From assembly GCF_900143065.1 (NCBI RefSeq), contig NZ_FRCX01000003.1, forward strand, positions 186,001-250,000: a stretch of DNA of 64,000 bases. The letters run 5' to 3'. The translations under genes and the position numbers were made by a program. The notes below the pieces were generated by a model. The model saw only the letters and a program-made list of their open reading frames with translations, was not told the origin of the DNA and did no database searches. This DNA comes from Duganella sacchari. Its GTDB lineage: Bacteria; Pseudomonadota; Gammaproteobacteria; Burkholderiales; Burkholderiaceae_D. Positions 17,622 through 33,530 of the stretch are shown here, piece by piece (position 1 is the stretch's first letter; each line of letters starts with the position of its first letter).

Positions 17622-19451
17622 ATGTGCGGCATCGTCGGCGCAGTAGCGCAACGCAATATCACTCCCATTTTGCTGGAAGGTCTGAAACGCCTGGAATACC
17701 GCGGTTACGACTCCTGCGGCGTGGCCCTGCACGTGGACGGCCAGCTGCAGCGCTCACGCAGCACCTCGCGTGTGGCTGATCTGGAACAGCAAATCAAGGA
17801 AGCCCGGCTGGAAGGCTACACCGGCATCGCCCACACCCGCTGGGCCACGCACGGCGCGCCGGCTTCGCATAACGCCCACCCGCACTTCTCGCCCTCGACC
17901 GAGCAGGCGCGGATAGCGCTGGTCCACAACGGCATCATTGAAAACCACGACGAACTGCGCGCCGAACTGACCGCGCTCGGCTATGTGTTCCAGAGCCAGA
18001 CCGACACCGAGGTGATCGCCCACCTGGTCGAGCATATGTACAACGGCGACCTGTTCGACACCGTGCAGCAAGCCGTCAAACGCCTCGATGGTGCGTACGC
18101 GATTGCCGTGTTCTGCCGCGAAGAACCGCACCGCGTGGTTGCCGCCCGCCAGGGCTCGCCGCTGATCGTCGGCCTGGGCCAGGGCGAAAACTTCGTGGCC
18201 TCGGACGCCATGGCGCTGGCCGGCACCACCGACCAGATCATCTACCTCGAAGAAGGCGACGTGGTCGACCTGCAACTGGGCCGCGTGTGGATCGTCGACA
18301 GCCACGGCAAGCAAGTCGAGCGCGACGTAAAAACCGTGCAGGCCCACACCGGCGCCGCCGAACTGGGGCCGTACCGCCACTACATGCAAAAAGAAATCTT
18401 CGAACAGCCCCGCGTGATCGGCGATACGCTGGAAGGCGTCACCGGCATCATGCCCGAGCTGTTTGGCGATGGCGCCTACAACGTCTTCAAGCAGATCGAC
18501 CGCGTGCTGATCCTCGCCTGCGGCACCAGCTACTACTCCGGCCTGACCGCCAAGTACTGGATCGAATCGGTGGCCAAGATTCCCGTCAACGTCGAAATCG
18601 CCTCCGAATACCGCTACCGCGACAGCGTGCCGCATCCGAACACGCTGGTGGTCACCATCTCGCAAAGCGGCGAAACCGCCGACACCCTGGCCGCGCTGAA
18701 ACACGCACGCAGCCTGGGCATGGAACACACGCTGACCATCTGCAACGTCGGCCACAGCGCCATGGTGCGCGAATGCCAACTGGCCTACATCACCCGCGCC
18801 GGCGTGGAAGTGGGCGTGGCATCGACCAAAGCCTTCACCACCCAGCTGGCGGCGCTGTTCCTGCTGACGCTGGCGCTGGCGCAAGTCAACGGCCGCCTGA
18901 CGGAAGCAGAGGAAGTCGAGCACCTGAAAGCCATGCGCCACCTGCCCGTCGCGATTTCGGCCGTGCTGGCGCTGGAGCCCCAGATCATTGCCTGGGCCGA
19001 AGATTTCGCGCGCAAGGAAAACGCCCTGTTCCTGGGCCGCGGCATGCACTACCCGATCGCGCTCGAAGGCGCGCTGAAACTCAAGGAAATCTCGTACATC
19101 CACGCGGAAGCCTATCCGGCGGGCGAGCTGAAGCACGGCCCGCTGGCGCTGGTGACCGAAGAAATGCCGGTGGTCACAGTCGCGCCTAACGACGCGCTGA
19201 TCGAGAAGCTCAAGTCGAACATGCAGGAAGTGCGCGCGCGCGGCGGCCAGCTGTACGTGTTTGCCGACGTCGACTCGCGCATTACCTCGGGCGAAGGCGT
19301 GCACGTGATCCGTCTGCCGGAACACTACGGTCTGCTGTCGCCGATCCTGCACGTGGTTTCCCTGCAGCTGCTGGCCTACCACGCCGCCGTCGCCCGCGGC
19401 ACCGATGTGGACAAGCCGCGCAACCTGGCCAAGTCGGTCACGGTGGAATAA
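17622..19451 (+). CDS. glmS: Glutamine-fructose-6-phosphate aminotransferase (isomerizing)
   Basis: Makes glucosamine-6-phosphate from fructose-6-phosphate and glutamine, the first committed step of the amino-sugar pathway. The 609 residues match E. coli GlmS. The N-terminal nucleophile Cys2 is in MCGIVG. The glutaminase domain runs to about 240, followed by two SIS domains (CGTSYYSGL near 301; SQSGETADT near 348) and the invariant C-terminus LAKSVTVE. The 3' end of this gene is the recognition sequence of Tn7-type TnsD, and the sequence directly after it is foreign. No glmS ribozyme is expected or seen. Confidence 0.98.
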
Positions 19452-19981
19452 CCATCCTGGATGTCCAGCCAGATGTCCTAAAGTAACAATTAATGCGGAT
19501 AATTCTATCTAGTGCGGGTTCGAGAAATGACAAATAATTGTATATGTGGATAATTGTTTCAATTAGGTTAAAAATGACTAATTTGACCCATGAAATTATC
19601 TGCTTGAAAACAATTATGGAGAGTTTTCTGGGTTAAGGAAAGAATTGACGCATAGTCAAGCTAGCGGATCTCAAGCTTTATCAAAAGGCTTTTCTGGTTA
19701 TGCTTGGGTGGCGGAAAGAGGGTGTCGGACGTGTAGGCGTTACTCAAGCTGCGGAGCGGCTATTTCGACAGCGTGGCCGCCAAGGTCGTGCTGGTGCAGC
19801 GAAACGGGTTGTAAGATAGCACGCCTGGCGCGCATTTGATGCCGCCGGCGGTAGATATCGCAGGCGGCATTTTTTGCATCAGTTCGGGAACGGAAGGATT
19901 TCTCGCTGCCGGGGTATTGCGTATACTTCTAGCTAAGCAGACCGCGAGAAACGGCATGCCCCTTCCCGAATCATTAACAAC
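19452..19981. other. attTn7 region: candidate decayed Tn7-like end, then gene remnant and terminator
   Basis: No intact gene. TGTCC begins 22 bases after the glmS stop, at or near the position where Tn7-like elements insert, preceded by a possible 5-base duplication (CCAGA). Within the next 130 bases come repeats that could be transposase sites: ATGCGGATAATTCTATC (19493), ATGTGGATAATTGTTTC (19544) and an inverted, weaker copy (19592-19605). From about 19750 to the TAA at 19814-19816 a short open stretch ends in VVLVQRNGL. It is followed by a perfect terminator hairpin and looks like the tail of a lost gene. No transposase gene remains. The Tn7 assignment is an inference from position and repeats. 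Confidence 0.45.
19839..19875 (+). terminator. Intrinsic terminator upstream of the island's first gene
   Basis: The stem ATGCCGCC/GGCGGCAT is perfect over 8 bp, with a 16-base loop and a following T-run of six. No complete gene precedes it in the preceding 380 bases, so it may be the displaced glmS terminator or that of a lost gene. Confidence 0.75.
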
Positions 19982-22453
19982 ATGGCAAGCATGTCCCACA
20001 TTACCGCCGACGTAAGGCTGAGGCCCATCCGTTTCGCGTTCCTGGTCCGTCCGGACGACCGGAGGCGCACGCTTGAAATCTTCAGGGTCAACACCTGTCT
20101 TTGGGGAGGGAAATTCAATCCCATCGTCCCGTGCTTCAGGCAGGTACCAGGCTGGTGGGACAGGCGCGGCCACAAGTTCGAGACAGCGATCCAGATCACT
20201 AACGGTTATCTCGACATGTTTGAGCCGGACTTTCTCGTTGAGGCGGAACCAGGCTTGGCGGATGGCCTCGAGTTCGATCCCGAGCGCGTCCTTCAACTCG
20301 GGGACGTGCTCGTCCGCGATGGGCAGGACCGTTCGGGCGGTTGCGGCCTGAGCGTCCTCGATCTATACAGGCACCTATATGAGGCCGAGTTCCAGTTCGT
20401 CCGCCGCCACAAGCACGACATAGTCGATGTGGTCCCGCGCCAGTCCGCCTTCAGGAACTTCGCCGCCGCCGTATTCGGCGCGTTCCCTTCCGACGAGGAC
20501 CTGCTGTACTTCGGCCGCGCATACGGGGACGCGTTCGCACCGGAACGGATATCCTTGGATGGCCCAGCGCTCGCCAGCCTTTACGGCAAGAGCCTCACTT
20601 CCGCGCTGCGGATCGGGCATTCCAAGATCGAAGTCGATTACCACAACCGGGACGATCCGACGCTTTTCGTGCTGGACGCGACGCAGCCGCGAGACCTCGT
20701 GGACTTCTGGAACCTACGCGCGGTAAGGCCGCACGTCCTTCCGATCCCGATCCAGTGGGCCGAGGAGCTATCCGGCTTCTGCAAGGAGTTCGTGGCGAGA
20801 AGCTTCAGGCCGCTCCCCGGCAACCCGAACGGGGTCATGATGCACGCGAACGTGATGTTCGCTAGGTCGATTCCGACGGCGGAAATAGAGCCGCTTTACG
20901 CGCGACATTTCCGGACAGGCGTGCCGGGAGCCGACGTGCGGCAGGACTGGTATCCCTCGATCTGGCGTCCGGCGCCGGGATTCACCGTTAGGGAGACCCG
21001 GCCGACCCTGACGGCCGGAAGCAGGACCGTGGACTCCGAGTTCTCGCAAGAGAGTCCGTATGTCCGAATCGACTGCGTGGATCCCGATTTCGCCGAAAAA
21101 TACGGCAATTCTAACCGCTGGGCGAACGTGGTCAGGCTGCGGGACTGGACGTTCAAGGACCAGCTAGCCACCGTCTTCCCGTGCGACTACAGAGCTCCGA
21201 AGTTTCCCAAGTTCGAGCCGCTGGCGGCCACGCTGCCTACGACGGAAGGCCTCGTTTCGTTTGCGAAATACAAGGAGTCCCGCCACTCCTGGAGGATGGT
21301 GACGGGGACGGCAGCCATAAACGAGTGGCTGAAAACGCACGGGATAACCGCCACCCTATCCGACGCTGGGCGCGCCACCGGCCAGATAATCCAGGCGCTC
21401 GGGGGATTCGGGGGCGTCAGGAGCCTCGCCCATCCGGCAATCGTGAAGCTGCTCAACAGCGTTACCCGGCGGCCGATATCGCCGTCGATACAGCACCAGG
21501 AGTTTAGAAACAAGCTGGAGGCGCCGCTCAAGGGCGACCACTGGCGTGCGCGGAACTTTGAGACTCTGGTCGAGCGTGGCGCCGTCGAGCTCGGTATGAA
21601 GCTGAAGTGCTCCAAATGCTCCAGCTGGAGCTGGTACGCCATCGACCGGATGGGTTACAGGGTGAGCTGCGCCCTGTGCCTGCAGGAGTTCGGCTTCCCG
21701 ATAGTCGAGCCGGCCAAGGGAGCGGAATGGGCCTATCGCCTTGTCGGGCCGTTCGCGCTGCCGAACTACGCCACCGGCGGCTACGCCGCCTCCTTGTCGA
21801 TCCGCTTTTTCGCAGACGTGGTCGACCAGGGGCACGACAGCAACGTCGCATGGTCGGCGGGCCAGGAACTCGCGTTCAGCCCGAGCGACCGGATCGAGGC
21901 AGATTTCATCCTGTGGTACCAGCGGAAGGTCACTTTTGGGAATGACTACCCGACGCAGCTGGTCTTCGGCGAGGCCAAGAGTTTCCGGGGCGAGAATGCG
22001 GAGGAGCGGCGCGAGATAGAAGACGCGTTCGACCAGCGGGACGTCGACAGGATGAAAAGGCTCGCGACCGAGTTCCCAGGATCGATCCTAGTGTTCTCGA
22101 CAATGAAAAAGCCGGAAGAGTTGTCCGACGACGAAATCGCGCGCATTTCCAAGCTTGCTCAATGGGGCCGCGAGTACGTGCGGGAGCGGCGTAAGTCGCG
22201 CGCGCCTGTAATCGTGCTAACCGCGAACGAGCTGTTCGCGCCGTATTCGCTTCGCGACGCGTGGGGCAAGCTGGGCGGAAGGCACGAGGAGTTCGCCAAC
22301 GCGGGGATGATCCGGACGGAAAACCTTCGTGTGCTTGCGGACCTTACTCAGCAACTCTACCTGAATCTTCCCTCTTACGGCGAGTGGCTCCGGGGGAAGT
22401 GGGAAAAGCGCGCCGAGCGCCGTAGGGCGCGTTCCGGAGCGCTGGCCAAGTAG
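19982..22453 (+). CDS. Large solitary protein with zinc ribbon and PD-(D/E)XK-type nuclease motif
   Basis: Not recognised as a named family. The 823 residues contain three visible parts. The N-terminal half is a large alpha/beta region with the striking block FRVNTCLWGGKFNPIVPC (residues 37-54). A zinc ribbon follows, with CSKC near 541 and CALC near 563. The C-terminal part carries a PD-(D/E)XK-like active site: Asp641 in EADFILWY and Glu664-x-Lys666 in VFGEAKSF, the usual D...ExK order. It is the first gene of the island and stands alone. Arginine is often encoded by AGG, unlike the housekeeping genes nearby, which fits horizontal origin. A DNA-cleaving defence role is plausible but unproven. 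An ATG nine bases downstream is an alternative start. Confidence 0.65.
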   Translation: MASMSHITADVRLRPIRFAFLVRPDDRRRTLEIFRVNTCLWGGKFNPIVPCFRQVPGWWDRRGHKFETAIQITNGYLDMFEPDFLVEAEPGLADGLEFDPERVLQLGDVLVRDGQDRSGGCGLSVLDLYRHLYEAEFQFVRRHKHDIVDVVPRQSAFRNFAAAVFGAFPSDEDLLYFGRAYGDAFAPERISLDGPALASLYGKSLTSALRIGHSKIEVDYHNRDDPTLFVLDATQPRDLVDFWNLRAVRPHVLPIPIQWAEELSGFCKEFVARSFRPLPGNPNGVMMHANVMFARSIPTAEIEPLYARHFRTGVPGADVRQDWYPSIWRPAPGFTVRETRPTLTAGSRTVDSEFSQESPYVRIDCVDPDFAEKYGNSNRWANVVRLRDWTFKDQLATVFPCDYRAPKFPKFEPLAATLPTTEGLVSFAKYKESRHSWRMVTGTAAINEWLKTHGITATLSDAGRATGQIIQALGGFGGVRSLAHPAIVKLLNSVTRRPISPSIQHQEFRNKLEAPLKGDHWRARNFETLVERGAVELGMKLKCSKCSSWSWYAIDRMGYRVSCALCLQEFGFPIVEPAKGAEWAYRLVGPFALPNYATGGYAASLSIRFFADVVDQGHDSNVAWSAGQELAFSPSDRIEADFILWYQRKVTFGNDYPTQLVFGEAKSFRGENAEERREIEDAFDQRDVDRMKRLATEFPGSILVFSTMKKPEELSDDEIARISKLAQWGREYVRERRKSRAPVIVLTANELFAPYSLRDAWGKLGGRHEEFANAGMIRTENLRVLADLTQQLYLNLPSYGEWLRGKWEKRAERRRARSGALAK

Positions 22454-22499
22454 CGGCACCTAAAGTGGACCCGCTAGTCAAGACACTCAACCGGCTAAA

Positions 22500-22661
22500 T
22501 TAAGCTGTGCCCATTACCCCTTCCGCAGCCGCTCGGCGCTGCCCCATTTCATTCACATTCTCCTGCTTCTGGTCTGCGTCGCCGAATTTGTCGACGATCA
22601 GCGCGCCGCCGCCGCTGCCTTTACAGTAGACGCGGTTTGGCGCCTCGTAGACTCTGCGCAC
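22500..22661 (-). pseudogene. Short coding-like remnant (53 codons)
   Basis: On the minus strand a GTG-started frame reads VRRVYEAPNRVYC, then GSGGGALIVDKFGDADQK, and ends in EGVMGTA. It is GC-rich with protein-like composition, unlike the AT-rich sequence just upstream. No ribosome binding site precedes the GTG. It is best read as a fragment of a lost gene. A real 53-residue protein cannot be excluded. Confidence 0.3.
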
Positions 22662-22706
22662 CCTATTAAGAAAGTGGCTTAAAAAGATTCATATTAGTGC
22701 GCCTAA

Positions 22707-22784
22707 CAATCCTTACAGCAATCAAAAAAATTCCTTACGTAATCCTTAGGATTGCCTTAGAATATTCTTACAAAATCCCTAAAC
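22707..22784. promoter_or_regulatory. 11-bp-phased CCTTA repeat array
   Basis: Copies of a CCTTA-like core start at 22711, 22733, 22744, 22755, 22766 and 22777, so the last five are exactly 11 bases apart and the first is two steps away. The best matches read AATCCTTA; the last two degenerate to TTCTTA and CCCTAA. Two of them form the inverted repeat AATCC-TTA-GGATT (22741-22753). The array ends about 25 bases before the 77-residue gene, covering its promoter. Phasing with the helix suggests cooperative binding of one protein along one face. Confidence 0.6.
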
Positions 22785-22808
22785 CCCAAAACATGGAAGG
22801 CAAAGAAG

Positions 22809-23042
22809 ATGGCGAAATCGGTAGATAGTGTGGTATCCGATCTGCGTGAGCTGCTTAACAAGTCTGGCAAGGATGCTGCAACTTTGACTTGGAAAAAATT
22901 CTACGTCGTCGCTGGACGGGAACGAATAAAGGATGCATTCATGGAGGACCTGGCCAAGCAGGCCAAGGCTGCAAGCCTGTTCGTCTCCTATGGGAACGCC
23001 GTGGTCTTGGTCGCCAAGGATTACGACTTTTCTCCGGTCTGA
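22809..23042 (+). CDS. Small acidic-basic protein of unknown function (77 aa), first gene of a two-gene unit
   Basis: No family recognised. Seventy-seven residues, soluble, mixed charge, with a probable helical start (SVDSVVSDLRELLNKSGKD), a central TWKKFYVVAGRERIKDAF segment, and a strand-like end (SLFVSYGNAVVLVAKDYDF). A clear GGAAGG ribosome binding site precedes the ATG. The 376-residue gene follows 66 bases downstream on the same strand. Its upstream phased repeat array suggests tight control, and a small basic protein directly behind such sites could itself be the regulator. That is only a suggestion. Confidence 0.6.
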   Translation: MAKSVDSVVSDLRELLNKSGKDAATLTWKKFYVVAGRERIKDAFMEDLAKQAKAASLFVSYGNAVVLVAKDYDFSPV

Positions 23043-23108
23043 AGCCAGACTGTCGTACCGTAAGCCCCTTGATCCTCATGATCCAACCGAACAGACAGGA
23101 AGAATAAA

Positions 23109-24239
23109 ATGGAAGTCGAACGCATCGCCGATGCAAGTGGCCGAGTCGCCATGTGGGCGTACGAATGGGATATCACCCAGTCACCCGCAGCCAAGGTCAA
23201 CCGCCAGTTCCTGGGATATGAGCAGCCGATCCGGCCAGACCAGACCGCCGCGCACGAGGTTCGCGAGGCGATCTGCTGGTCTTACGGTCGCACGCTGGGT
23301 AATATCGCGGTCTTCAGCGAAGAGTTGCTTGGCTCGTTCCCTGCGCAAAAGGGGGATGACGCCATTTTGGCTTGCGACATCGTTGAGGCGGGCAAAATGC
23401 GAAATGGCGCGAAGCGTTGGTGGTGCCGTACGCATCAGAAGCACTGGGGCACGAAGGGGGACATCGCAGCCGCAAGGCGGAGCGGCGTGGCCCGATGCTC
23501 CAACCATTTGCAGCCGATGTCATACGTAATCAATCCTCCCCATATCCGTATGGAGGAGCATGCCGAAGTGGGCATCTGGTGTTCGCTGCCGCCTGCATTG
23601 ACGAGCATGGGCTTGCCTGCGAGACGCAGGCCAAAGATCCATGTCCATGTACGCCAGCAAGCCGGCGGTGACAAGGTGATAGATCAGGATTTCGAAGCCC
23701 TATCCCTGCACTACAACCCGGCTGGTGACCTTTTCGCCAACAACGAAATCAACAAGGTGCACGTGACTCCGCCGGCGGCCCTTGAGTTCGTGCTTGCCTT
23801 GGAATCCGGCTTGGAGATGGGTTGCATCAATTGCAGAGACTGCGGATACCCGCATCTGGATCTCGGAGATTTCGCGCGTACGGCTCATAGCAAGCACCTG
23901 TGCGGCAATTGCGGTAGGGACAATACGTGGAGTAAGGTTGCGATGGCATCTACACCACTGAAGCCGCTGCACGACCAGTTCAGCAAGGCGTCGCAGTATG
24001 ATGACGTGGACAAGGTGCTCAATATTGATGAATATCCAGGCGCCAGCTTCGCACTGTGGGCCTCTACTCCGGCGGTACTGTGGACAGCAAACCGTGCTCA
24101 AGAACGCGGTATTCACGTTCATTTGAGAGCAGATAGTCATCCCCCTATCGACGACACCTTCGGCACCGTAATTTACCAAGGTAATGAGCTGGATCGTTCT
24201 CAACTACTGGAGTCGATGATAGCAAACACCATCATCTGA
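23109..24239 (+). CDS. Zinc-ribbon protein of unknown function (376 aa)
   Basis: I cannot name the family. Two metal-binding-looking parts are visible. The middle has CRTHQKHW near residue 106 and an RCSNH segment near 130. Around residues 238-274 there is a clear zinc ribbon: CINCRDCGYPHLDLG, then HSKHLCGNCG, giving CxxCxxC...HxxxHxCxxC. The C-terminal 100 residues are a conserved-looking globular domain (PLKPLHDQF, then FALWASTPAVLWTANRAQERGIHVH). No membrane segment or signal peptide. The gene has a good AGGAAG ribosome binding site and follows the 77-residue gene, so the two probably act together. The island position makes a defence or stress role likely by association only. Confidence 0.7.
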   Translation: MEVERIADASGRVAMWAYEWDITQSPAAKVNRQFLGYEQPIRPDQTAAHEVREAICWSYGRTLGNIAVFSEELLGSFPAQKGDDAILACDIVEAGKMRNGAKRWWCRTHQKHWGTKGDIAAARRSGVARCSNHLQPMSYVINPPHIRMEEHAEVGIWCSLPPALTSMGLPARRRPKIHVHVRQQAGGDKVIDQDFEALSLHYNPAGDLFANNEINKVHVTPPAALEFVLALESGLEMGCINCRDCGYPHLDLGDFARTAHSKHLCGNCGRDNTWSKVAMASTPLKPLHDQFSKASQYDDVDKVLNIDEYPGASFALWASTPAVLWTANRAQERGIHVHLRADSHPPIDDTFGTVIYQGNELDRSQLLESMIANTII

Positions 24240-24394
24240 CTCTCCGTACCGTGACGTGCTACAAATAGCACATCACGGGGCACACAACGGCGTTGGCCTG
24301 ATAGTCGTTGCGATTAGATACTGCTCTGGGCATAGTGAAGGAAACCTATCATCTAGCCCGAGTTACTTGACCGTTACAATTTGACAGGAAAACC

Positions 24395-25201
24395 ATGTTC
24401 GCCTGGTTAAAAACTTTGGTGTCCGGGTTCGGTGCGACAACGGCGCCATCGCCAGTTAATCCTGAGCCCGCAGCGGCGTCGATGCAGGTCGCAGTACCGC
24501 CTTTGTATTTTCTGGACGTGGACGACGCAGACAGGCTGTTTTTGCGTTTTGTGCATGCCACGTCGTCGGAAAACGCGCCAAGTATCCGTGCGTTGGGGTT
24601 GCGGCCGTTGCACGATGTTCGCGCTCGCCTGCTGGCGTACCTCGCGCTAGTATTCCCTGAACAGGATGCCGAGGGTCTGCTTAGCATGATTACCAAGGAC
24701 ACCAATCAGCAAAGAAATTCTCTGGTCATTCGGCGCCTGCAAGCAGAGGCCGAAGGACGGGCGACATTGTCGCTACTGCCCCTGGGTAGTCACGGCTATC
24801 TGGGCTCGGCAGCGTCGAACGCGGTATTCGATGGCGGCGAGGTGTTCCGAGCGGCGCGGGAAGCCGTCAACAGTCTGTGTTCGATCACCGTGCCGCCACC
24901 TTACCCCGACGCAGTGCCAACGGTCTTCGTCGTGCGCCATTACCTGACGGGAGATCCACCCGATTTACAGCTGGAGGGCACGGGCGATCATGGCGTGTCG
25001 TTGCGCGAAGCCGTCGCCAGCGACTTCACTAGCGACTACTGGTGCACTTATGGCACCGAGATGGAACTGGCTGTGAGTACAGCGTATCAGCCGGCACACA
25101 TCGAAGGTGAATTCCGGTTGGTGGATTTCAAGCGTCGGCGCATGGCGAAAGCCAGTCCATCCGCCATCACAGTGGCAACAGCCATGCTTGCCGCCGCGTA
25201 G
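24395..25201 (+). CDS. Hypothetical protein, possible ADP-ribosyltransferase-like fold
   Basis: A 268-residue protein, no firm family match. After a low-complexity Pro/Ala-rich stretch (residues 18-38) it has FVHATSSENAPSIRALGLRPL (near 50-70). This resembles the first motif of many ADP-ribosyltransferase-fold proteins (H-x-T-s...n...SI...GL). Later come GYLGSAASNAVF (near 130) and YGTEMELAVST near 225, which could supply the Tyr and Glu of an H-Y-E type active site. That assignment is tentative. It has its own ribosome binding site (AGGA) and 155 bases of upstream space, so it may be a single-gene unit. No obvious antitoxin partner adjoins it. Confidence 0.5.
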   Translation: MFAWLKTLVSGFGATTAPSPVNPEPAAASMQVAVPPLYFLDVDDADRLFLRFVHATSSENAPSIRALGLRPLHDVRARLLAYLALVFPEQDAEGLLSMITKDTNQQRNSLVIRRLQAEAEGRATLSLLPLGSHGYLGSAASNAVFDGGEVFRAAREAVNSLCSITVPPPYPDAVPTVFVVRHYLTGDPPDLQLEGTGDHGVSLREAVASDFTSDYWCTYGTEMELAVSTAYQPAHIEGEFRLVDFKRRRMAKASPSAITVATAMLAAA

Positions 25202-25530
25202 ACGCAACTTACGATATTGGCTTAGCTTCAAACTAAACCATACCTACCGGGCAAGTCTAGTTGGGCATTTACCCAAATATCGTGTGCTAATGCAAGCTAG
25301 ACTTCACAACCCCCAAGCATGCCTCCGGATGCATTGATCCGTTTGACGCAGATATATTAGGAACCACACAGAATATTTATAGTTTATATTGCAATAATTA
25401 TGGTTGTGATATGAGTTGGCTTGGGCTTTCAAAATCATAGCTTCGCTAAGAAGCTAAATTGCAAGGGGTAAGAGATCAGTAGTACTCTACTCGTGTACAA
25501 TTAAAGGTTTTTTTGTCATTATGATATACC

Positions 25531-25550
25531 GATTGCAACATGGTGCAATC
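25531..25550. promoter_or_regulatory. Near-perfect 20-bp palindrome upstream of the regulator
   Basis: GATTGCA-ACATGG-TGCAATC, with perfect 7-bp arms; 18 of 20 positions are symmetric. It lies about 120 bases before the regulator start, in a stretch that would suit a promoter or operator. Confidence 0.5.
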
Positions 25551-25580
25551 GTGACCGTGATGTCGGCAAAAAAAATTAAA

Positions 25581-25650
25581 GTGAAACGAAATACGTTTGT
25601 TTTTGATGCTTTTTGTTGCGTTATTGGGGGTGAAGTGATACGATCGTTTC
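25581..25650. promoter_or_regulatory. Two GTGAAACGA-type operator copies
   Basis: AAACG-AAATA-CGTTT (arms at 25584-25598) and GATACGATCGTTTC (25637-25650, with perfect core ACGATCGT). Both begin with GTGA and share the half-site GAAACG/CGTTTC. A third copy, GAAAC...GTTTC (25863-25882), lies inside the regulator gene. This is the pattern expected of an autorepressor. The regulator just downstream is the natural candidate. Confidence 0.5.
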
Positions 25651-25670
25651 ATATTTATTTGGTCCTGATT

Positions 25671-26033
25671 ATGCCTAAAGTTCAAAAAGACGACGCTCTT
25701 CACACAGAGATACAGGCCATCGTTGCTTTGTGTGGTGGCCTTGGTAAAGCCGAGAAAGCCCTTCAAATCAACCGTGCCACACTGTGGCGGTTCTGCAAGT
25801 CTGGCTGTGCAATTGATCGAACTCGACAGCAATTGGAAGTAGCGGCAAAACGATATAGAAGTGAAACGAATAATTTTGTTTCCCGGCAAGAGAAAAAAAT
25901 GCCTGCTTCTGACGAATTGCGCATTGATCAGCTGCGTAAGATCCGGGCCTTCTGCCAATCCATGATCACTTTCGTTGATGCATTTGAGAGCACGCTCGGC
26001 CTCGCGGTGGATACGCACGCCGCCGCACAGTAA
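25671..26033 (+). CDS. Small HTH transcriptional regulator, first gene of the ietAS-type operon
   Basis: A 120-residue protein. The segment LGKAEKALQINRATLWRFCKSG (described by its HTH pattern at residues 26-47) looks like a helix-turn-helix. Confidence 0.6.
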   Translation: MPKVQKDDALHTEIQAIVALCGGLGKAEKALQINRATLWRFCKSGCAIDRTRQQLEVAAKRYRSETNNFVSRQEKKMPASDELRIDQLRKIRAFCQSMITFVDAFESTLGLAVDTHAAAQ

Positions 26034-26061
26034 GGCGCAGTTGAACTAAGAGGTATTTGAT

Positions 26062-27147
26062 ATGTCGACAAGTGTAAAAGGCGATCGCCAGGCGTTAAAA
26101 CGGACGATGGAGGCTATTCTTGCTGCGTCCCAAAAGAAGGCAGCGAAGCAGCCGGAGCTTCCTGGCTTGGATGTGCTCCCTCAGAGCGCAGGAAATAGCA
26201 CGACTAAAGTGTTGCCTGAACGTATTGCCGAGATGGTTTATAACGTACCTGCTAAGCGCAGGCTGGCAGATTTGTTCCTGCAGAGCGATATCGTTGAAGA
26301 GGTTAATGAATTTATTTATGAGTATTCGCATTCTGCCCTTTTAAGAGCGAATTCTCTTGAGCCCCGACATACTCTCTTATTAGTTGGTCCTCCTGGTAAT
26401 GGTAAGACCAGTCTGGCTGAAGCATTGGCTACTGAGTTGTCACTTCCACTGCTTTCCATTCGCTATGATGCAATCGTTGACAGTTTCCTTGGCGAGACGT
26501 CGAATCGGTTGCGAAAGCTGATCGATTACGCCACGTTAAATCCTTGCGTCTTATTCTTTGATGAGTTTGACGCGGTGGGGAAAGAGCGTAGTGATGCTCA
26601 GGAAACCGGGGAAATAAAGCGTGTGGTTAGCTCGTTGCTTGTGCAAATGGATCATTTACCTAGCCATACACTCATCGTGTGTGCAACCAATCATCCTGAA
26701 CTACTGGACCGTGCCGTTTGGCGCCGCTTTGAAGTAAAGCTTGAAATTACTCGCCCTGATCGTTCGCAATTAAAACAATGGTTCACTCGATTCGGCAAAT
26801 CGTTAAATGATGTCGAGCTCGGTGTAACACCCGATGAGTTTGCTGAGTGCATGGACGGCGAGAATATGTCTGAGGTTGAAGCCTTTACCTTAGACGTTAA
26901 ACGGAAGATAATATTATCCAAAGGGCGTATCACACCAGCCGAGGCTGTTGGCCATGTCTTAACTCGGTTAAAAAAACGCCCATCGAATAATGTTACTCTT
27001 CTCAGGGATCATGGCGACCAATTATCCGATCATACGGCTAAACCGAGTGCAAAAAGACGCGCCTCGAATAACGGGGCGAAAACCTCCGCCACCCCCAAGC
27101 AAAATCCCGTACGTAAAGCAGCTGCAGCGCTTGGGAAAAAAGTTTGA
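26062..27147 (+). CDS. ietA: AAA family ATPase of an ietAS-type module
   Basis: A 361-residue single AAA ATPase. Walker A GPPGNGKTS has Lys115, Walker B LFFDEFDA has Asp167-Glu168, and the RAVWRRFEV segment (near 215) supplies sensor/arginine-finger residues. The N-terminal 70 residues are basic and helical, and the C-terminal 50 are a Lys-rich tail. Together with the next gene, a subtilisin-like protease, this is the ietAS pair: first described as a Ti-plasmid toxin-antitoxin/incompatibility module, later counted among anti-phage systems. The ATPase is the partner that restrains or drives the protease. It follows the regulator by 28 bases and its 3' end overlaps the protease gene by 137 bases. 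Confidence 0.85.
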   Translation: MSTSVKGDRQALKRTMEAILAASQKKAAKQPELPGLDVLPQSAGNSTTKVLPERIAEMVYNVPAKRRLADLFLQSDIVEEVNEFIYEYSHSALLRANSLEPRHTLLLVGPPGNGKTSLAEALATELSLPLLSIRYDAIVDSFLGETSNRLRKLIDYATLNPCVLFFDEFDAVGKERSDAQETGEIKRVVSSLLVQMDHLPSHTLIVCATNHPELLDRAVWRRFEVKLEITRPDRSQLKQWFTRFGKSLNDVELGVTPDEFAECMDGENMSEVEAFTLDVKRKIILSKGRITPAEAVGHVLTRLKKRPSNNVTLLRDHGDQLSDHTAKPSAKRRASNNGAKTSATPKQNPVRKAAAALGKKV

Positions 27148-29602
27148 TTCAGTTTTTCAAAACCTGGCGAAATTTGATAGTGGCGTTGAAGTTGCCTACG
27201 ATCCCAGGAATGTCGTTCCTGAGCGTGCCGCAGTATTTGAATTAATCGGTAAAGTTGCTGATTTTGAGGTGGCGGCTCAAGCGCTTGGCTTCGAATGGAT
27301 GGGAAGCCGCAGCCTCGACTCTGACGCTGAAGATGAGGAACGAGACGATGATGAGGACGGCGCCGGCGGCCAGGGCAACAATGTTCTATACCTTACCATT
27401 CCAAGCCCGAAAGGCCTGAAAAATCTCCTGGCGCAGTGGAACCGATATAGCCGCGGTGAGGAGCCTCCTACGCGTGCCGATAAACCGCTATGGCTCCTCT
27501 TTGGCTACTTATCTGACTTAAGGGGCTGGTCTGAGAAAGATCGCATCGACCCCGCCCTGACGAAATACATCGATCTTCTGGTTGCCGCCTACCCCGATCG
27601 TCACGTACAGGTGGAGTTGGACTTCTGGTACCGAAGTGAGAAAGAGCGTAGGGACAACTCGATTGAGGTCTTAAAGCGCTTGCTTGTCGAGGTCGGCGGA
27701 CAGCTGCTCGATCTGGTTGATATCAACGAGATTCGCTATCAGGGCGCCCTGGTAAGCTTGCCGGCAGCCGTTGCTAAGAAGCTTGCTGCCGGAAACACGA
27801 TAACGCAGTTCGACGACATCATGACGATCCGGCCGCAGTCGATTTACTCGACTGAGTTGTCGCCGGAGGTGCCAGTGACCGGCGCCAGCTTCTCGCAATC
27901 CTTACCTACCCGCCGATGCATTACCGCACTTCTGGATGGTTACCCGGTGAGCGGACATGCGGCTCTTTCTCAACGCCTTACAATTCACGAAGTCGATGTC
28001 AAAGGCGAGGATGTTCCCGCCGCAGCACGCAATCATGGTACTGCGATGGCCTCCTTGATTGTGCACGGTGACCTGCAGGCAACCGATGGCGCTATCACGC
28101 GCCCTATCGCCCTTTTCCCTGTCCTGAGCTGCACCAGTAATCCAGGAAGTCAAGAAACAACGCCGAAAGGAAAGCTGCCAATTGGCGTGATTTACCGGGC
28201 GCTTAAAGAGTTGGTGTCTAACCGGACAAAGCCAGAATTTGCCGGGATCACCGTCGTGAATCATTCCATCTGCGACACCTATGCCCCATATGTACGTAGA
28301 CCATCTCCATGGGCCACCCTCCTCGATTACTTTAGCCATCACCACCATCTGTTGTTTGTGATAAGCGCGGGCAATATCACGGAGTCCTTCCCCGTTGACC
28401 TTTTTGCGAACTTGAATGCATTTAACGGCGCAAACCCGGCGCTGCGGGAGGCTGCGTTGCTCAATGCCATCAACGCCGCAAAAGGCACGCGAGGAATTCT
28501 CAGCCCAGCAGAATCGATTAATGGTGTGACCGTTGGGGCGCTGCACATTGATGGCGCGGGAAAACCAACGAACGTGATTGATCCTTACCCTGAAGCCGAA
28601 GTTCCTAATTTGGCCTCGGCTTTTGGCTTTGGTGTGAACCGGAGTTTGAAGCCTGATCTTGTCGAACAGGGTGGCAGATTTACCGCAGGGTGCTCAAACG
28701 TACCAGGGGGTGGTGTGAAGGTGCATGCACTGGCCGCTGCTGGAATGGGCCACCAGGTCGCCAGCCCATCAGTGACGGGTGACCTGACATACGTGACGCG
28801 CACAGCCGGCACCAGCAATGCCGCTGCATTGCTCTCCAGGGCCTGCAACAAAATTGCCGATGCGGTAGAGGACTCATTGGCAGAAGAAGGAACAGATTGG
28901 CTAAGTCTTCGCACGCGGGCAGTTATTCTGAAAACCTTGCTTGCACATGGTAGTGCGTGGGGAGAGTCCGCTGAGCATTTATATGGGGCGTTTCCGCCGA
29001 TCGATGGGCGCAAGCATGTGATGCGAAAGGACAACCTCTCCAAGTTTTTCGGCTATGGTCGACCTGATCTACGCAGGATCGTCAGTGGTTCTGAGGATCG
29101 AATCACGCTGTTGGCCGAAGACTTCATCGCTACGGGCAAGTTGCACGAATACCGTCTTCCCATTCCAACGGCAATGATTAACAATAAAGAGGTTCGCTCG
29201 ATCACCGTGACCTTGAGTTGGACAACGCCAGTTGTGACGCACTCGGTTGACTATCGGGGAGTTGGGCTCAAGCTTGTTAACGCACAGGGCAAGACCGCAT
29301 TATGGGAAGGCGTTGAACGTCAGTTGCAGCCTAATCGCACCACTTGCGACCGAGGAACGCTTCTGCACATTAAGTTTGAGGGAGCCAAGCTCGTCAAGGC
29401 CGCAGATCCCGCAGGCATCTTCATTGGGATTCAGGCTCTACAGCGACACCCCTCCCTGATAGGTGCTTCCGTTCCATACGCGTTGGCCGTGACGCTTGAA
29501 ATGGCGCAAAGCCAACAGACGGGCATTTTTGAAGAGATCCAGGAAATTATGAAACAGCGCGCTGCGGTGCGTTCACAAACTCGAATTGGAACCAGAACAT
29601 GA
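27011..29602 (+). CDS. ietS: Subtilisin-like (S8) serine protease of an ietAS-type module
   Basis: An 863-residue cytoplasmic-looking protease with no signal peptide. The catalytic triad is visible: Asp309 in ITALLDGYP, His342 in NHGTAMASLI, Ser602 in GTSNAAALL. The spacing of Asp and His is normal, but the His-Ser distance is long. The N-terminal 290 residues, with an acidic stretch near 100-115 (DAEDEERDDDED), and the C-terminal 200 beta-rich residues are extra domains found in this protease type. The frame opens upstream, but ATG 27011 gives the natural start MATNYPIIRLNRV. Overlapping genes suggest coupled, stoichiometric expression. Its substrates are unknown; toxicity without the ATPase is known for the Ti homologue. 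Confidence 0.85.
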   Translation: MATNYPIIRLNRVQKDAPRITGRKPPPPPSKIPYVKQLQRLGKKFDSVFQNLAKFDSGVEVAYDPRNVVPERAAVFELIGKVADFEVAAQALGFEWMGSRSLDSDAEDEERDDDEDGAGGQGNNVLYLTIPSPKGLKNLLAQWNRYSRGEEPPTRADKPLWLLFGYLSDLRGWSEKDRIDPALTKYIDLLVAAYPDRHVQVELDFWYRSEKERRDNSIEVLKRLLVEVGGQLLDLVDINEIRYQGALVSLPAAVAKKLAAGNTITQFDDIMTIRPQSIYSTELSPEVPVTGASFSQSLPTRRCITALLDGYPVSGHAALSQRLTIHEVDVKGEDVPAAARNHGTAMASLIVHGDLQATDGAITRPIALFPVLSCTSNPGSQETTPKGKLPIGVIYRALKELVSNRTKPEFAGITVVNHSICDTYAPYVRRPSPWATLLDYFSHHHHLLFVISAGNITESFPVDLFANLNAFNGANPALREAALLNAINAAKGTRGILSPAESINGVTVGALHIDGAGKPTNVIDPYPEAEVPNLASAFGFGVNRSLKPDLVEQGGRFTAGCSNVPGGGVKVHALAAAGMGHQVASPSVTGDLTYVTRTAGTSNAAALLSRACNKIADAVEDSLAEEGTDWLSLRTRAVILKTLLAHGSAWGESAEHLYGAFPPIDGRKHVMRKDNLSKFFGYGRPDLRRIVSGSEDRITLLAEDFIATGKLHEYRLPIPTAMINNKEVRSITVTLSWTTPVVTHSVDYRGVGLKLVNAQGKTALWEGVERQLQPNRTTCDRGTLLHIKFEGAKLVKAADPAGIFIGIQALQRHPSLIGASVPYALAVTLEMAQSQQTGIFEEIQEIMKQRAAVRSQTRIGTRT

Positions 29603-30498
29603 GTGTATTTAGTAGCGGCGATTCCTTGGGGGCTCGTAGCCAGTCTGAGATTGGTGAGTATCTTGCGGCCATCGGCGACAATCAGGCAGCCGCCGAATTT
29701 CTCGGCGGCCAGGTCGCAGGCCAGGGGCTGTTCGGATCGAAGAAGGCGTATAAGCATATCGACTCCATTCTCGGTTTTGTGCCAGTGACGACAGGCGATC
29801 AGGTCAAGGTCCCTGTGCAGGGCGCCAGCAAGCTTACTGCCGATGCCGCCATTATCGGCAAACGGGTGAAGATTTCACTCGATAAGTTTTATGTCGCGGA
29901 ATATCCAGGCCGCGGCCAGCACCTCATCTTGTGTGAATTCACCGGGAAGAACCAGATGGCCGGCGAGACGGAGGAACTTCGCTTCGCACTGCGATTTAAT
30001 GCCAATGACGGCTCTGGCGCCGGCATGGCCGGCGTGCCGATCTTTATGGGCGTGACGGTTGGCAAGAACGGCATTTCATTCGAAGGACGTTCGATCAACG
30101 TCAACAGTTCCGGAGATGAAACCGTGCTCGACACACTGGGCACCCCCGCCTTTCAAAATGGCTTAGGTCTTCTGCTGTCTGCACAGCCAGCCTTAAAACC
30201 CTTCACCAGCCTGGCCACGGCCGTGGTGAAAACTATTGCAAGCAAATCGAAGAACACCCAGGTGCATAACTTTGCGCTGGGCCTTGATTTCGCTGCAAGC
30301 GGCACTTCTGCCAAGCTTCAATATGGCTCATATGTAGTTGTCCAGTGTGATGAAACAACTGACTGGGAATGGGATCAATACGAGTGGAATCGAGACACGA
30401 ACATGATCGAGCTCAAGGATAAATCACGGGTCTTCCCATACAACTTCATGGTGTTTAGGGTTGTGCCCTTTGACGAAGAGGACAGCGCGGCCGGTTGA
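29599..30498 (+). CDS. Unknown 299-aa protein coupled to the protease
   Basis: No family recognised with confidence. The start codon overlaps the protease stop (ATGA), so the two are translationally coupled. The N-terminal 60 residues look helical. The middle (residues 80-180; RVKISLDKFYVAEYPGRGQHLILCEFTG, then GVPIFMGVTVGKNGISFEG) reads as an eight-strand beta sandwich, C2-like in style. The C-terminal part ends acidic (PFDEEDSAAG). No signal peptide or membrane segment. It may be a substrate, targeting factor or second effector of the protease. It is not part of the minimal ietAS definition, so this is a possible extension of the system. Confidence 0.65.
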   Translation: MSVFSSGDSLGARSQSEIGEYLAAIGDNQAAAEFLGGQVAGQGLFGSKKAYKHIDSILGFVPVTTGDQVKVPVQGASKLTADAAIIGKRVKISLDKFYVAEYPGRGQHLILCEFTGKNQMAGETEELRFALRFNANDGSGAGMAGVPIFMGVTVGKNGISFEGRSINVNSSGDETVLDTLGTPAFQNGLGLLLSAQPALKPFTSLATAVVKTIASKSKNTQVHNFALGLDFAASGTSAKLQYGSYVVVQCDETTDWEWDQYEWNRDTNMIELKDKSRVFPYNFMVFRVVPFDEEDSAAG

Positions 30499-30511
30499 AT
30501 CCGCACTTCAT

Positions 30512-30784
30512 ATGTATATTCTCAAAGAAGGCCGAGCGGCGTACTTGGAGTTCTTACGCAATCTTACGCCCCAAATTTTGATGCTGTCACTTGCATTTTT
30601 TGTGGGGCGCAAAATCGATTTTACTCAGTTGGACTGGGCATACGCGACACCTACTTTTATCTTTTATTCGTTCATGCTGATTGCCATTTTTGCTGCCTAC
30701 GCAAATGCAACACTGTTCATGGAAAAGTATTCACCGAGTCTGCAGGTTGTTCGTTTGCTCGCAGAATTGACCCATTCCAATTGA
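30512..30784 (+). pseudogene. Two-span membrane protein, 3' end replaced by an IS21 remnant
   Basis: The first 79 codons (MYILKEGRAAYLEFLRNL and on) encode a short basic-start protein with two hydrophobic segments, at about residues 20-33 and 47-68 (FIFYSFMLIAIFAAYANATLF). The remaining codons (VVRLLAELTHSN) come from the reverse strand of a truncated IstA gene, so the natural C-terminus is missing. The start lies 13 bases after the 299-residue gene. It is therefore the fifth gene of the operon, and its membrane location may be where the system acts. It may still be made as a truncated product. Confidence 0.55.
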
Positions 30785-31221
30785 CCCGCCTTCCACTGCC
30801 TGGCAAACGCTGCCACGCGGTCGTATGACCCTTCATAGCCGAGTTCTTTCAGTTCCAGGTGGAGCTGCTTCAAACTGCGCCGCTGCTTACGAGGCTTTGT
30901 AGTCTCGGCCTTTAGCCAGCCTGATAGCTGCACCGAGTATTTATCCAGTCCACTAGATGATCGCCGCTCCGCATAGGAGGGCTCTGTAGTTTCCGATCGC
31001 AGGTAGCGTCGGACGGTGTTGCGCGAGATGCCGAGTCGTCGGGCAATCTCTCGTATGGGGATCTGGTCACGAAGGTGCCAGCGTCGAATTATTCCTAGCA
31101 ATGCCACGTCGATCACTCCGATCTCCTGCCGAAAGGACAGGGGGAATTGTGCTACTAACGTGGGTCAGATTCCGTTGCAAATTCGTGGGGAAGGTGGGTC
31201 AGATTTCAGTGCAACTTAACA
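30748..31221 (-). mobile_element. IS21-family element remnant with truncated istA
   Basis: The istA reading frame starts at 31116. Its first 120 codons carry the typical IstA HTH (IREIARRLGISRNTVRRYLR, residues 21-40) and the TKPRKQRRSLKQLHLEL stretch. The coding match stops near residue 123, so most of istA and all of istB are missing. Beyond the start, one end of the IS is intact. Two imperfect 21-base direct repeats, both beginning GTGGGTCAGAT and ending GTGCAA or GTTGCAA (31160-31180 and 31194-31214), lie 34 bases apart, as is usual for IS21 ends. The element ends at about TTAACA. Confidence 0.8.
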
Positions 31222-31296
31222 ATCTGCGCTCTCTTGGTGAAGCTGTTGGGGGCGCTGGAGAAACCGGCGGCTTCAACTTATTTTCTCCCGCCATAT
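31222..31296. other. Island-to-chromosome junction upstream of blaI
   Basis: No gene, no terminator and no second transposon end are visible between the IS remnant and the blaI operator. The chromosomal backbone probably resumes here. Confidence 0.4.
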
Positions 31297-31350
31297 TGAC
31301 TCCATGTGACTAATGTCGCATCATTGCTAGTATAGTCACATACCGAGTCA
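31297..31350. promoter_or_regulatory. Large dyad operator in front of blaI
   Basis: The left arm TGACTC-C-ATGTGACTA (31297-31312) and the right arm TAGTCACAT-ACC-GAGTCA (31333-31350) are inverted copies, with 6+9 matching bases interrupted by one versus three bases. The 20-base spacer reads ATGTCGCATCATTGCTAGTA. The right arm ends three bases before the blaI start codon. This is a strong candidate BlaI operator covering the whole promoter. Confidence 0.65.
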
Positions 31351-31353
31351 TCC

Positions 31354-31740
31354 ATGTCCGTCCCTTCCATTACCGAACTGAGCCTGTTGAAGGCTTTATG
31401 GCGCCAGCAGCCGCTGAGCGCGCGCGAAATCCACCAGCAAGTCGAGGCTGAACTCGGCTGGTCGTACTCATCGACGCGCAAGACGCTGGAACGCATGCTG
31501 GAAAAAGGCATGGTGAACCAGCACCTGGTGCATGGCGTCCAGGTCTACCAGGCCGTGCTGGAAAAGGTCGACACGCTGGCCGCGTTTGCGCGCGACTTTG
31601 GCAAGCGCGTGATGGAGATGGACACGCCGCTGCCAGTCACCATGTTCACCGGCAGCAAGCTGGTGGACGAGCAGGAACTGACCCAGCTCGAGCAATTGCT
31701 GCAGAACTGGCCCGACGACGCGGACGAATCTCAGCAATGA
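31354..31740 (+). CDS. blaI: BlaI/MecI family transcriptional repressor
   Basis: A 128-residue winged-helix repressor (ITELSLLKALWRQQPLSARE, then TRKTLERMLEKGMV). In this family the dimer binds a dyad operator until the sensor protease cleaves it. A potential cleavage position in the C-terminal helix region cannot be assigned by eye. The stop codon overlaps the start of the BlaR1-type gene (ATGA), the classic blaI-blaR1 arrangement. The dyad just upstream is its expected binding site. Confidence 0.9.
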   Translation: MSVPSITELSLLKALWRQQPLSAREIHQQVEAELGWSYSSTRKTLERMLEKGMVNQHLVHGVQVYQAVLEKVDTLAAFARDFGKRVMEMDTPLPVTMFTGSKLVDEQELTQLEQLLQNWPDDADESQQ

Positions 31741-33530
31741 CCGGCTTCGATATCGCCCTGGTCCGCCTGCTGCTCGCTGCCGCAGGTTCGCTGGCGGCCG
31801 GCGGCGCGGTCTGGGGTGTGGCCCTGCTGTGCCGCAGATATCTGCCGGCGCTGGCCCAGCATCGTTCGCTGTGGCTGCTGGGCCAGATCGCGGTGGCGGT
31901 GGTGTTTGCCGCCATGCTGCTGCCGACCACGCAACGGTTGCGGGTAGTGCCCGTGATCGAGATGAACGAGGAGGCGCCGTCGCCCATGCCGGCGGCGTCC
32001 GCATCGCCGCAGGCCAGTGCTACCGTTACGCCGGCAGCGGACTTGACGCCCGCCGCGCCGGCCCTCTCCTGGCATACCTGGCTGCGCGATGCCGCCCGTG
32101 CCTGGCTGCTGCTTTACCTGCTCGGCCTTGGTCATGCCGTGTGGCGCTGGCGCCGTGCCCAGCGCTGGCTGGAGGCGCTGGCTGCCAGCGGAAGTCCGTT
32201 GGATGCCGCGGCACACGTGCCGCTGCCTGATGTGATTGAAGTCGCCGCGCCGATTTCTCCCATGCTGCAAGGCTTGCGCAAACCGCGCCTGCTGCTGCCG
32301 CGCCATCTGCGCACGTTTGATCCCCTGCAACAGCAGTTAATCGTCGAACACGAGCTGACCCACTGGCGCCGTCACGACCTGTGCTGGAGCGTGGCCGCAT
32401 TCGCCTTGCAAAGCCTGTTCTGGTTCAATCCCTTCATGCGCCTGCTGCGCGCGCGCCTGGGCTGGGCGCAGGAATTTGGTTGTGACCGCGATGTACTGCG
32501 CGGCCGTCCGCCCGCCGAGCGCAAGGCCTATGCGGCGGCCCTGGTGGCGCAATTCAAACTGCAACTGCGCCCCGCCGATATGGCGCTGGCCTTTGGCGCC
32601 AGCGATGCAGGCGCCCACGCGCCGACGCTGGCGGCACGCATCAGCCTGATTCGCACGCCAACCACGGAGCGTCGTCGCTGGCCGCGCTGGCTGGCGTTGG
32701 CCAGCCTGACGGCGGTGGCCGTGGTCAGCGTGGCGTTGCAACCGGCGCTGGGCTGGCGCAGCGCCGAGGTGCAGGACGCGTCTGCCGGCGCGGCGCTGGC
32801 GCTGGATTGCACGGTGATGGTGGACGCCGCCAACGGCGCCTCGCTGGTGCGCGAGGGAACGTGCGGCGAGCGCGTCACGCCGGCCTCGACCTTCAAAATT
32901 GCCATCAGCCTCATGGGCTTCGACAGCGGTGTGCTGCGCGATGAACATGCGCCCTACCTGCCCTACCAGGAAAGCTATGCGTCCAGCAATCCATCCTGGC
33001 GCCATGGCACCGATCCGGCCGGCTGGTTGCGCGAATCCATCGTCTGGTACTCGCAGCAGGTGACGTCGCAGCTGGGCGCCGGCAGCGTGCGCAACTATGT
33101 GCAGTCGTTTGAATACGGCAACCGCGACATCGCCAGCGTGGCGGGCGTGGACGACGCGGTGGCGTTCTCCGAACTCAGCCCGACGCTGCGGATTTCCGCG
33201 CTGGAACAGGCAGCCTTCCTGCGCAAGGTGGTGAACCGCAGTCTGCCCCTGTCGGCGCACGCATACGACATGACGGCGCGCCTGCTCAAGCTCGATCAGC
33301 CGGTGAATGGCTGGGAGGTCTACGGTAAAACCGGCACGGCCGCCGTGCGCCTGCCGGATGGCAGTGAGGATCAGGCACAGGATATCGGCTGGTTCGTCGG
33401 CTGGGCCGTCAAAGATGGCCGCACGGTGGTGTTTGCCCGGCTGTTGCAGCATCCGGTCGAGGCTGACCTCTATGCCGGCCGGCAGACGCGTGACGCCTTC
33501 CTGCGCGAACTGGCGCAACGCGTATTGTGA
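31737..33530 (+). CDS. blaR1: BlaR1-type sensor: M56 metalloprotease fused to a class D beta-lactamase-like domain
   Basis: A 597-residue inner-membrane sensor. Hydrophobic segments lie at about residues 5-25, 35-60, 112-130, 220-235 and 315-335. The zinc-protease motif is H205-E-L-T-H209. The C-terminal periplasmic domain (about 355-597) carries all class D motifs: S384-T-F-K387, S434-I-V436, Y460-G-N462 and K531-T-G533. In the staphylococcal BlaR1 sensor the Val of the second motif is Asn, which prevents deacylation; here it is Val, as in true OXA enzymes. The conserved Trp before LRISA, which in OXA enzymes protects the carboxylated Lys, is missing. So it may be a sensor, a slow hydrolase, or both. 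No separate beta-lactamase gene follows. Confidence 0.88.
   Translation: MTGFDIALVRLLLAAAGSLAAGGAVWGVALLCRRYLPALAQHRSLWLLGQIAVAVVFAAMLLPTTQRLRVVPVIEMNEEAPSPMPAASASPQASATVTPAADLTPAAPALSWHTWLRDAARAWLLLYLLGLGHAVWRWRRAQRWLEALAASGSPLDAAAHVPLPDVIEVAAPISPMLQGLRKPRLLLPRHLRTFDPLQQQLIVEHELTHWRRHDLCWSVAAFALQSLFWFNPFMRLLRARLGWAQEFGCDRDVLRGRPPAERKAYAAALVAQFKLQLRPADMALAFGASDAGAHAPTLAARISLIRTPTTERRRWPRWLALASLTAVAVVSVALQPALGWRSAEVQDASAGAALALDCTVMVDAANGASLVREGTCGERVTPASTFKIAISLMGFDSGVLRDEHAPYLPYQESYASSNPSWRHGTDPAGWLRESIVWYSQQVTSQLGAGSVRNYVQSFEYGNRDIASVAGVDDAVAFSELSPTLRISALEQAAFLRKVVNRSLPLSAHAYDMTARLLKLDQPVNGWEVYGKTGTAAVRLPDGSEDQAQDIGWFVGWAVKDGRTVVFARLLQHPVEADLYAGRQTRDAFLRELAQRVL

What the first reader, a model, noticed from the sequence alone, without database searches (positions are those of the whole stretch)
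25671..30784. Five-gene extended ietAS operon
ietA (AAA ATPase) and ietS (subtilisin protease) are known as a plasmid toxin-antitoxin module and as an anti-phage pair. Here the pair is embedded in a tight operon: an HTH regulator upstream (28 bases), a translationally coupled 299-aa beta-rich protein, and a two-span membrane protein. The extra three genes may define a distinct subtype, with the regulator restraining expression and the membrane protein giving the site of action.
Basis: partly seen in the sequence, partly recalled or inferred. Interest (0 to 1): 0.7.

Follow-up and report, generated by a model that had tools for sequence, protein, structure and literature searches.

The report
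Third gene rides with ietAS protease

Summary
They do not form one five-gene subtype. The conserved unit is ietA-ietS-D299. Outside the window, D299 lies beside an ietS match in 26 of 28 distinct loci found with it (the misses are a cut contig and a fragment). In 398 phylum genomes drawn without regard to D299, it occurs in 3, exactly those with the closest IetS, one being the window's own. On an IetS tree D299 marks one clade: 23 of 23 rows inside, 0 of 19 outside. The HTH gene is lineage-limited (10 of 25 loci). The membrane gene is in none of the other 24 and is truncated beside an IS21 remnant. D299 matches no database family; its model (pLDDT 87) most resembles C2 domains, borderline. Full-length cyanobacterial homologues exist; a shortened copy sits directly upstream of a caspase-type peptidase, so D299 probably partners the protease. 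Likely role, untested: C2-like adaptor that aims or licenses the protease. A new three-gene variant of a known system.

The parts
25615..25644 (+). promoter/operator-like element: GTTGCGTT (25615) overlapping a -35-like TTGCGT (25616), 17-base spacer, -10-like TACGAT ending at 25644
   Evidence: 8-mer shared by the 6 Burkholderiales among 9 HTH upstream regions examined; in 0 of 2000 simulated sets was any 8-mer in all six; the consensus promoter scan did not list this site; function inferred
25671..26033 (+). small protein (120 aa) read as HTH-type, predicted regulator of the operon
   Evidence: own profile finds it upstream of ietA in 10 of 25 distinct loci, five of them profile seeds; no match above a curated cut-off, best E 0.0028
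26062..27147 (+). ietA, AAA+ ATPase (361 aa)
   Evidence: PADLOC PDLC04232 2.3e-120, Pfam AAA 6.1e-33; Walker A/B present
27011..29602 (+). ietS, S8 subtilisin-type protease (863 aa), overlapping ietA by 137 bases out of frame
   Evidence: PADLOC PDLC04233 5.8e-245, Pfam Peptidase_S8 1.9e-13; D/H/S triad kept in 25 of 25 distinct loci that have ietA and these IetS positions
29599..30498 (+). D299: constant third gene of this ietAS clade; predicted C2-like beta-sandwich with N-terminal helices and an inserted helical segment
30512..30784 (+). truncated membrane gene (90 aa; nearest homologues 140-148 aa); probably not part of the system
30785..31116 (-). remnant of an IS21 istA transposase gene (its ORF, 30697-31116, runs into the membrane gene's end)
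   Evidence: NCBIfam transpos_IS21 residues 11-131, model 1-118 of 294

Best explanation
This is a three-component variant of the IetAS system in which the third gene, D299, marks a single clade of IetS proteases and encodes a protein that likely acts as a dedicated partner aiming or licensing the protease. Shown: the ietA-ietS-D299 order, tight spacing, clade-specific association, intact catalytic residues, and full-length cyanobacterial homologues, with one shortened copy that precedes a caspase gene. Known for a two-gene relative: on Salmonella Genomic Island 1 the IetS homologue is the toxin and the IetA homologue the antitoxin, as for the pTiC58 pair that the paper cites; IetAS is also listed as anti-phage. 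Inferred: IetA holds IetS inactive; infection or loss of the operon frees IetS; D299, through a C2-like surface, places the protease at a membrane or on its target, so that cleavage stops growth or phage. Inferred too: the HTH protein represses its own promoter in lineages that have it.
For: D299 beside an ietS match in 26 of 28 distinct loci. IetS-first sample: of 398 phylum genomes, 15 hold a long IetS match (over 150 bits); D299 is in the 3 with at least 37% identity (one is the window's genome), in 0 of the 12 others (29-33%) and in 0 of the remaining 383. Plasmids: D299 over most of its length only beside the two closest IetS among 105 IetS-matching records. IetS tree: one clade, 23 of 23 against 0 of 19, SH-aLRT 100. 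D299 starts within -4 to +20 bases of the ietS stop in 22 of 26 distinct loci. Cyanobacterial homologues align over 295 columns, hhalign probability 100; in Tolypothrix a shortened copy lies directly upstream of a Peptidase_C14 caspase gene, with no ietA or ietS match in the 18-kb locus; a Symploca protein runs the D299 end straight into a caspase part. Model pLDDT 87.4; the best chains carry C2 domains of PI3K, PLC and Vps34. Toxin and antitoxin roles of relatives: passages of PMC5006074.
Confidence: 0.45

Rival explanations
1. D299 is the protease's substrate and the real effector: IetS (or a caspase in cyanobacteria) would cleave it, and the released C2-like protein would attack the membrane, in the manner of gasdermins paired with proteases.
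For: A constant partner beside proteases of two unrelated classes, subtilisin and caspase, is the pattern reported for fungal gasdermins, whose controlling proteins carry an S8 protease or a caspase-like CHAT domain (passages of PMC12881547). Many C2 domains bind membranes (established knowledge).
Against: The IetS homologue itself is the toxin in a two-gene relative (PMC5006074). No match of D299 to any Pfam or PADLOC family at E up to 1, and I saw no gasdermin chain among the rows shown (50 of each list). No cleavage site was tested.
Confidence: 0.22
2. D299 is a second antitoxin or chaperone that keeps IetS folded or inactive alongside IetA.
For: Tight spacing to ietS (ATGA here; 22 of 26 loci within -4 to +20 bases) suits production together with the protease; the association follows IetS phylogeny.
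Against: The antitoxin role is already filled by IetA in a studied relative; D299 relatives also exist where no ietA was found (Tolypothrix locus; L084).
Confidence: 0.18
3. One reading: HTH, IetA, IetS, D299 and the membrane protein act together, the membrane protein giving the site of action.
For: All five lie on one strand with short gaps. A near relative (P0001, 97% identical D299) and an intact membrane homologue (P0122) have the same longest contig length, 14,122 bases, so they probably lie on one contig.
Against: No membrane homologue in the other 24 of 25 loci with a full-length ietA; truncated here; intact paralogue away from ietAS; on a Variovorax plasmid the annotated neighbours of its homologue include no ietAS; in 195 family genomes the family was found only in the window's own.
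Confidence: 0.05
4. D299 is a passenger captured once and carried along by chance.
For: Single origin on the IetS tree.
Against: Retained in Burkholderiales and several alphaproteobacterial families at 41-53% identity to the window copy, and on plasmids and virus-like contigs, with the tight spacing kept.
Confidence: 0.05

Closest known systems
IetAS of Ti plasmid pTiC58 and S026-S025 of Salmonella Genomic Island 1
   Same: AAA+ ATPase and S8 protease; toxin-antitoxin activity shown for S025/S026 (passages of PMC5006074)
   Different: two genes; no third gene is named in the passages read; the window's IetS scores far below the NCBIfam cut-off of the IteS model (50.8 of 900 bits)
PADLOC ietAS models PDLC04232/PDLC04233
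   Same: the window pair matches both models over nearly their full length
   Different: D299 and the HTH protein match no PADLOC model at E up to 1
Protease-paired gasdermins
   Same: constant partner gene beside S8 or caspase-like proteases (passages of PMC12881547)
   Different: D299 shows no gasdermin sequence match; predicted fold closest to C2
Trypco1/Trypco2, trypsin-co-occurring domains of MoxR-vWA conflict systems
   Same: protein families defined by sitting next to a defence protease (passages of PMC7159879)
   Different: other protease class; no sequence comparison made
C2 domains (PI3K, PLC, Vps34 by VIA-align; DOCK180, MCTP2 by Foldseek)
   Same: similar predicted beta-sandwich

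Membership tests
IetAS | AAA+ ATPase gene of the IetA family | tested here: met
   PDLC04232 E 2.3e-120; Walker motifs
IetAS | adjacent S8 protease gene of the IetS family with intact triad | tested here: met
   PDLC04233 E 5.8e-245; D309, H342, S602
IetAS | above NCBI's equivalog cut-offs for IteA/IteS | tested here: not met
   229.5 of 510 bits and 50.8 of 900 bits: related, but outside that equivalog, so filed as a divergent branch
IetAS | anti-phage or toxin-antitoxin activity | not testable with these tools
   needs experiment
C2 domain | C2 sequence profile | tested here: not met
   no Pfam family at E up to 1 for D299
C2 domain | C2 fold | tested here: inconclusive
bacterial gasdermin | gasdermin sequence profile | tested here: not met
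   no Pfam or PADLOC family for D299 at E up to 1
bacterial gasdermin | gasdermin fold and protease cleavage | tested here: inconclusive
   not seen among the rows shown; cleavage not testable here

The most novel reading that the evidence does not exclude
D299 founds a new family of C2-like protease partners shared by two unrelated immune proteases, IetS subtilisins in Proteobacteria and caspase-type peptidases in cyanobacteria: a module that directs, or is fired by, whichever protease sits beside it.
Probability: 0.35. Interest if true: 0.78.

Novelty: new variant of a known kind. Interest (0 to 1): 0.55.

Why it matters
IetAS is widely annotated, yet its mechanism is described as unknown (PMC11878078, passages). 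A clade with a constant extra gene gives a handle: D299 can be removed, added to two-gene pairs, and used as bait for the trigger or target. The link to caspase-type proteases, if it holds, would join two defence proteases through one partner family.

Tried and rejected
Membrane protein as a system part: rejected. D299 as a known family: no Pfam, PADLOC or NCBIfam match at E up to 1; best PHROG E 0.26. SAM-like N-terminus: only E 0.53 against Atherin, not used. D299 relatives downstream of distant ietS (including the small genes in L031 and L032): the D299 profile finds nothing there. D299 in named phages: no match in 50,697 records. Viral-contig scan with the single IetS sequence: none confirmed. 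Own-order scan: D299 in 1 of 300, the window's genome. Rfam: nothing above gathering scores at 24000-33000. Promoter and terminator consensus scan: no more sites than in shuffles, and not the site proposed here. Empty site between glmS and the blaI-like gene: not shown; no glmS match in the stretches L106-L118.

Literature: searches (ietAS, IetA/IetS, IteA/IteS, subtilase with defence words); in the listings no title or abstract start mentions a third ietAS gene. Of papers I saw passages only (PMC5006074, PMC11878078, PMC8195603, PMC7159879, PMC12881547); most subscription papers and all preprints are not held.

Limits of the counts: the D299 rows of the tree were found by searching with D299, so the tree alone is biased; searches are the IetS-first tests, and one of the three positives is the window's genome. 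In the tree I left out five copies of the window and rows whose best IetS stretch was under 450 residues or lay on the minus strand of its locus. For some rows without D299 little downstream DNA is held (L042 113 bases, L064 3, L062 565, L054 633); L054, L062 and L064 come from genomes searched whole, L042 does not. G531, G357 and G994 appear to be the genomes of L018, L016 and L017 (same scores or contig length), so they add no loci. The 28 loci: 22, 2, 2 that cover most of the query, and G983 and G1054; the window, L084 and the three Tolypothrix-type plasmids are not among them. Some are near copies (L016/L017, L022/L023, L003/L021). In L002 D299 is matched in two frames, so that copy may be frameshifted. 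The 25 loci with full-length ietA include the window. The motif test used a first-order Markov model and the six Burkholderiales regions; of the other three of nine, L018 holds TTGCGTT but not the 8-mer, L016 and L017 neither.

Full report
What is there. The window lies in contig C30 of a 6.68-Mb genome. On the plus strand run an HTH-type gene (25671-26033), ietA (26062-27147), ietS (27011-29602), a 299-aa gene here called D299 (29599-30498) and a 90-aa membrane ORF (30512-30784). PADLOC models name ietA and ietS with 400 and 813 bits; NCBI's models for the pair match well below their cut-offs, so this is a divergent branch. The protease triad and the ATPase motifs are intact. The ietA and ietS frames overlap by 137 bases; overlaps of 29-182 bases occur in 25 of 25 distinct loci (start codons chosen by the script).

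Which genes belong: D299. Loci were found with the D299 profile in a one-genome-per-species collection (22), in virus-like contigs (2) and in the order of another genome (2 new), and with the D299 sequence on plasmids (2 covering most of it). An ietS match lies directly upstream in 26 of these 28. In two of the 26 (L005, L013) only the C-terminal part of IetS was matched, and in one (L022) the match is in two pieces. The two misses are L025, where the contig starts inside D299, and L026, a fragment matched in two frames without ietAS. Read the other way, IetS first: 25 of 398 phylum genomes match IetS at E up to 0.001, 15 of them with over 150 bits; D299 is in 3 of 398, exactly those whose IetS is 37%, 44% and 100% identical to the query (the last being the window itself), and in none of the 12 with 29-33%. 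Among 105 plasmid records with an IetS match, the two with the closest IetS carry D299 over most of its length; eight more distant plasmid pairs that I fetched have none within 5 kb downstream. On an IetS tree of 42 rows D299 falls in one clade, 23 of 23 against 0 of 19, support 100.

Which genes belong: the HTH and the membrane gene. A homologue of the HTH protein is upstream in 10 of 25 distinct loci with a full-length ietA, among them 6 of 7 Burkholderiales (five of the ten are seeds of the profile). Of nine HTH upstream regions, the six from Burkholderiales share the 8-mer GTTGCGTT; in none of 2000 simulated sets was any 8-mer in all six. In four of them (window, L006, L011, L019) it overlaps a -35-like hexamer with a -10-like hexamer 17-18 bases on; in L012 and L008 the promoter-like pair uses TTGCGC and TTGCAC. 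The consensus scan did not list the window's site. Promoter and operator roles are inferred. The membrane ORF is not part of the unit: no homologue in the other 24 loci, nearest homologues of 140-148 aa, an end that abuts an IS21 fragment, and an intact paralogue elsewhere in the genome. Against this, one near relative of D299 and an intact membrane homologue probably share a 14-kb contig.

A second context. Cyanobacterial proteins of about 305 aa are full-length relatives (hhalign probability 100 over 295 columns; 34.8% identity between a cyanobacterial member and the Undibacterium copy). In Tolypothrix an internally shortened copy lies directly upstream of a caspase-domain gene and a gene with EAD10 and FGE-sulfatase domains; a Symploca protein joins the D299 C-terminus to a caspase part. 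I could not survey other cyanobacterial neighbourhoods. A virus-like contig, L084, carries a D299-type gene alone among phage-like genes, with a signal-peptide-like start (judged by eye).

Mechanism. In a studied two-gene relative the protease is the toxin and the ATPase the antitoxin (PMC5006074, passages). D299 follows the protease: it tracks the IetS tree, is tightly spaced to ietS, and a relative sits beside another protease class. I therefore read D299 as a protease partner that aims or licenses IetS, perhaps at membranes (confidence 0.45). The chief rival is that D299 is a substrate-effector, as gasdermins are in fungi beside S8 or caspase-like proteases (PMC12881547, passages). All functional steps are untested.

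Novelty. I score it as a new variant of a known kind.

Noticed in passing
window 17622-31170: Low-GC stretch (0.51-0.57 in the 2-kb bins of 22-32 kb; other bins 0.59-0.67 except the first, 0.53) between a glmS-like gene (17622-19451, SIS and GATase domains) and an IS21 remnant; looks like an island downstream of glmS.
   Followed up: partly
window 19982-22453: 823-aa protein without Pfam or PADLOC match; a 40.7% identical homologue lies on a Photobacterium damselae plasmid.
   Followed up: partly
window 23109-24239 and 24395-25201: 376-aa and 268-aa ORFs without any family match beside the operon.
   Followed up: no
L084 4632-5594: D299-type protein with a signal-peptide-like start encoded alone among phage-like genes: possibly an exported moron product.
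   Followed up: partly
25 ietAS loci, e.g. window 27011-27147: Out-of-frame overlap of 29-182 bases between ietA and ietS in 25 of 25 loci; the IetA tail and IetS start share DNA.
   Followed up: partly
L031 7512-8108 and L032 7530-8069: Other small genes follow ietS directly in two distant ietAS pairs; no Pfam match and no D299 profile match. The slot after ietS may be a variable accessory position.
   Followed up: partly
G000:C22:133662-134078 (L104 6657-7079): Intact 140-aa paralogue of the window's truncated membrane protein.
   Followed up: partly
window 31354-33530: BlaI-like repressor and a BlaR1-type M56 protein fused to a transpeptidase domain; the latter has a match in 18 of 21 genus genomes searched, the own one included.
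   Followed up: no
model m58d9a778ce3f: Best BFVD match of the first D299 model is a Hokovirus protein of unknown function, E 2.5e-6.
   Followed up: no
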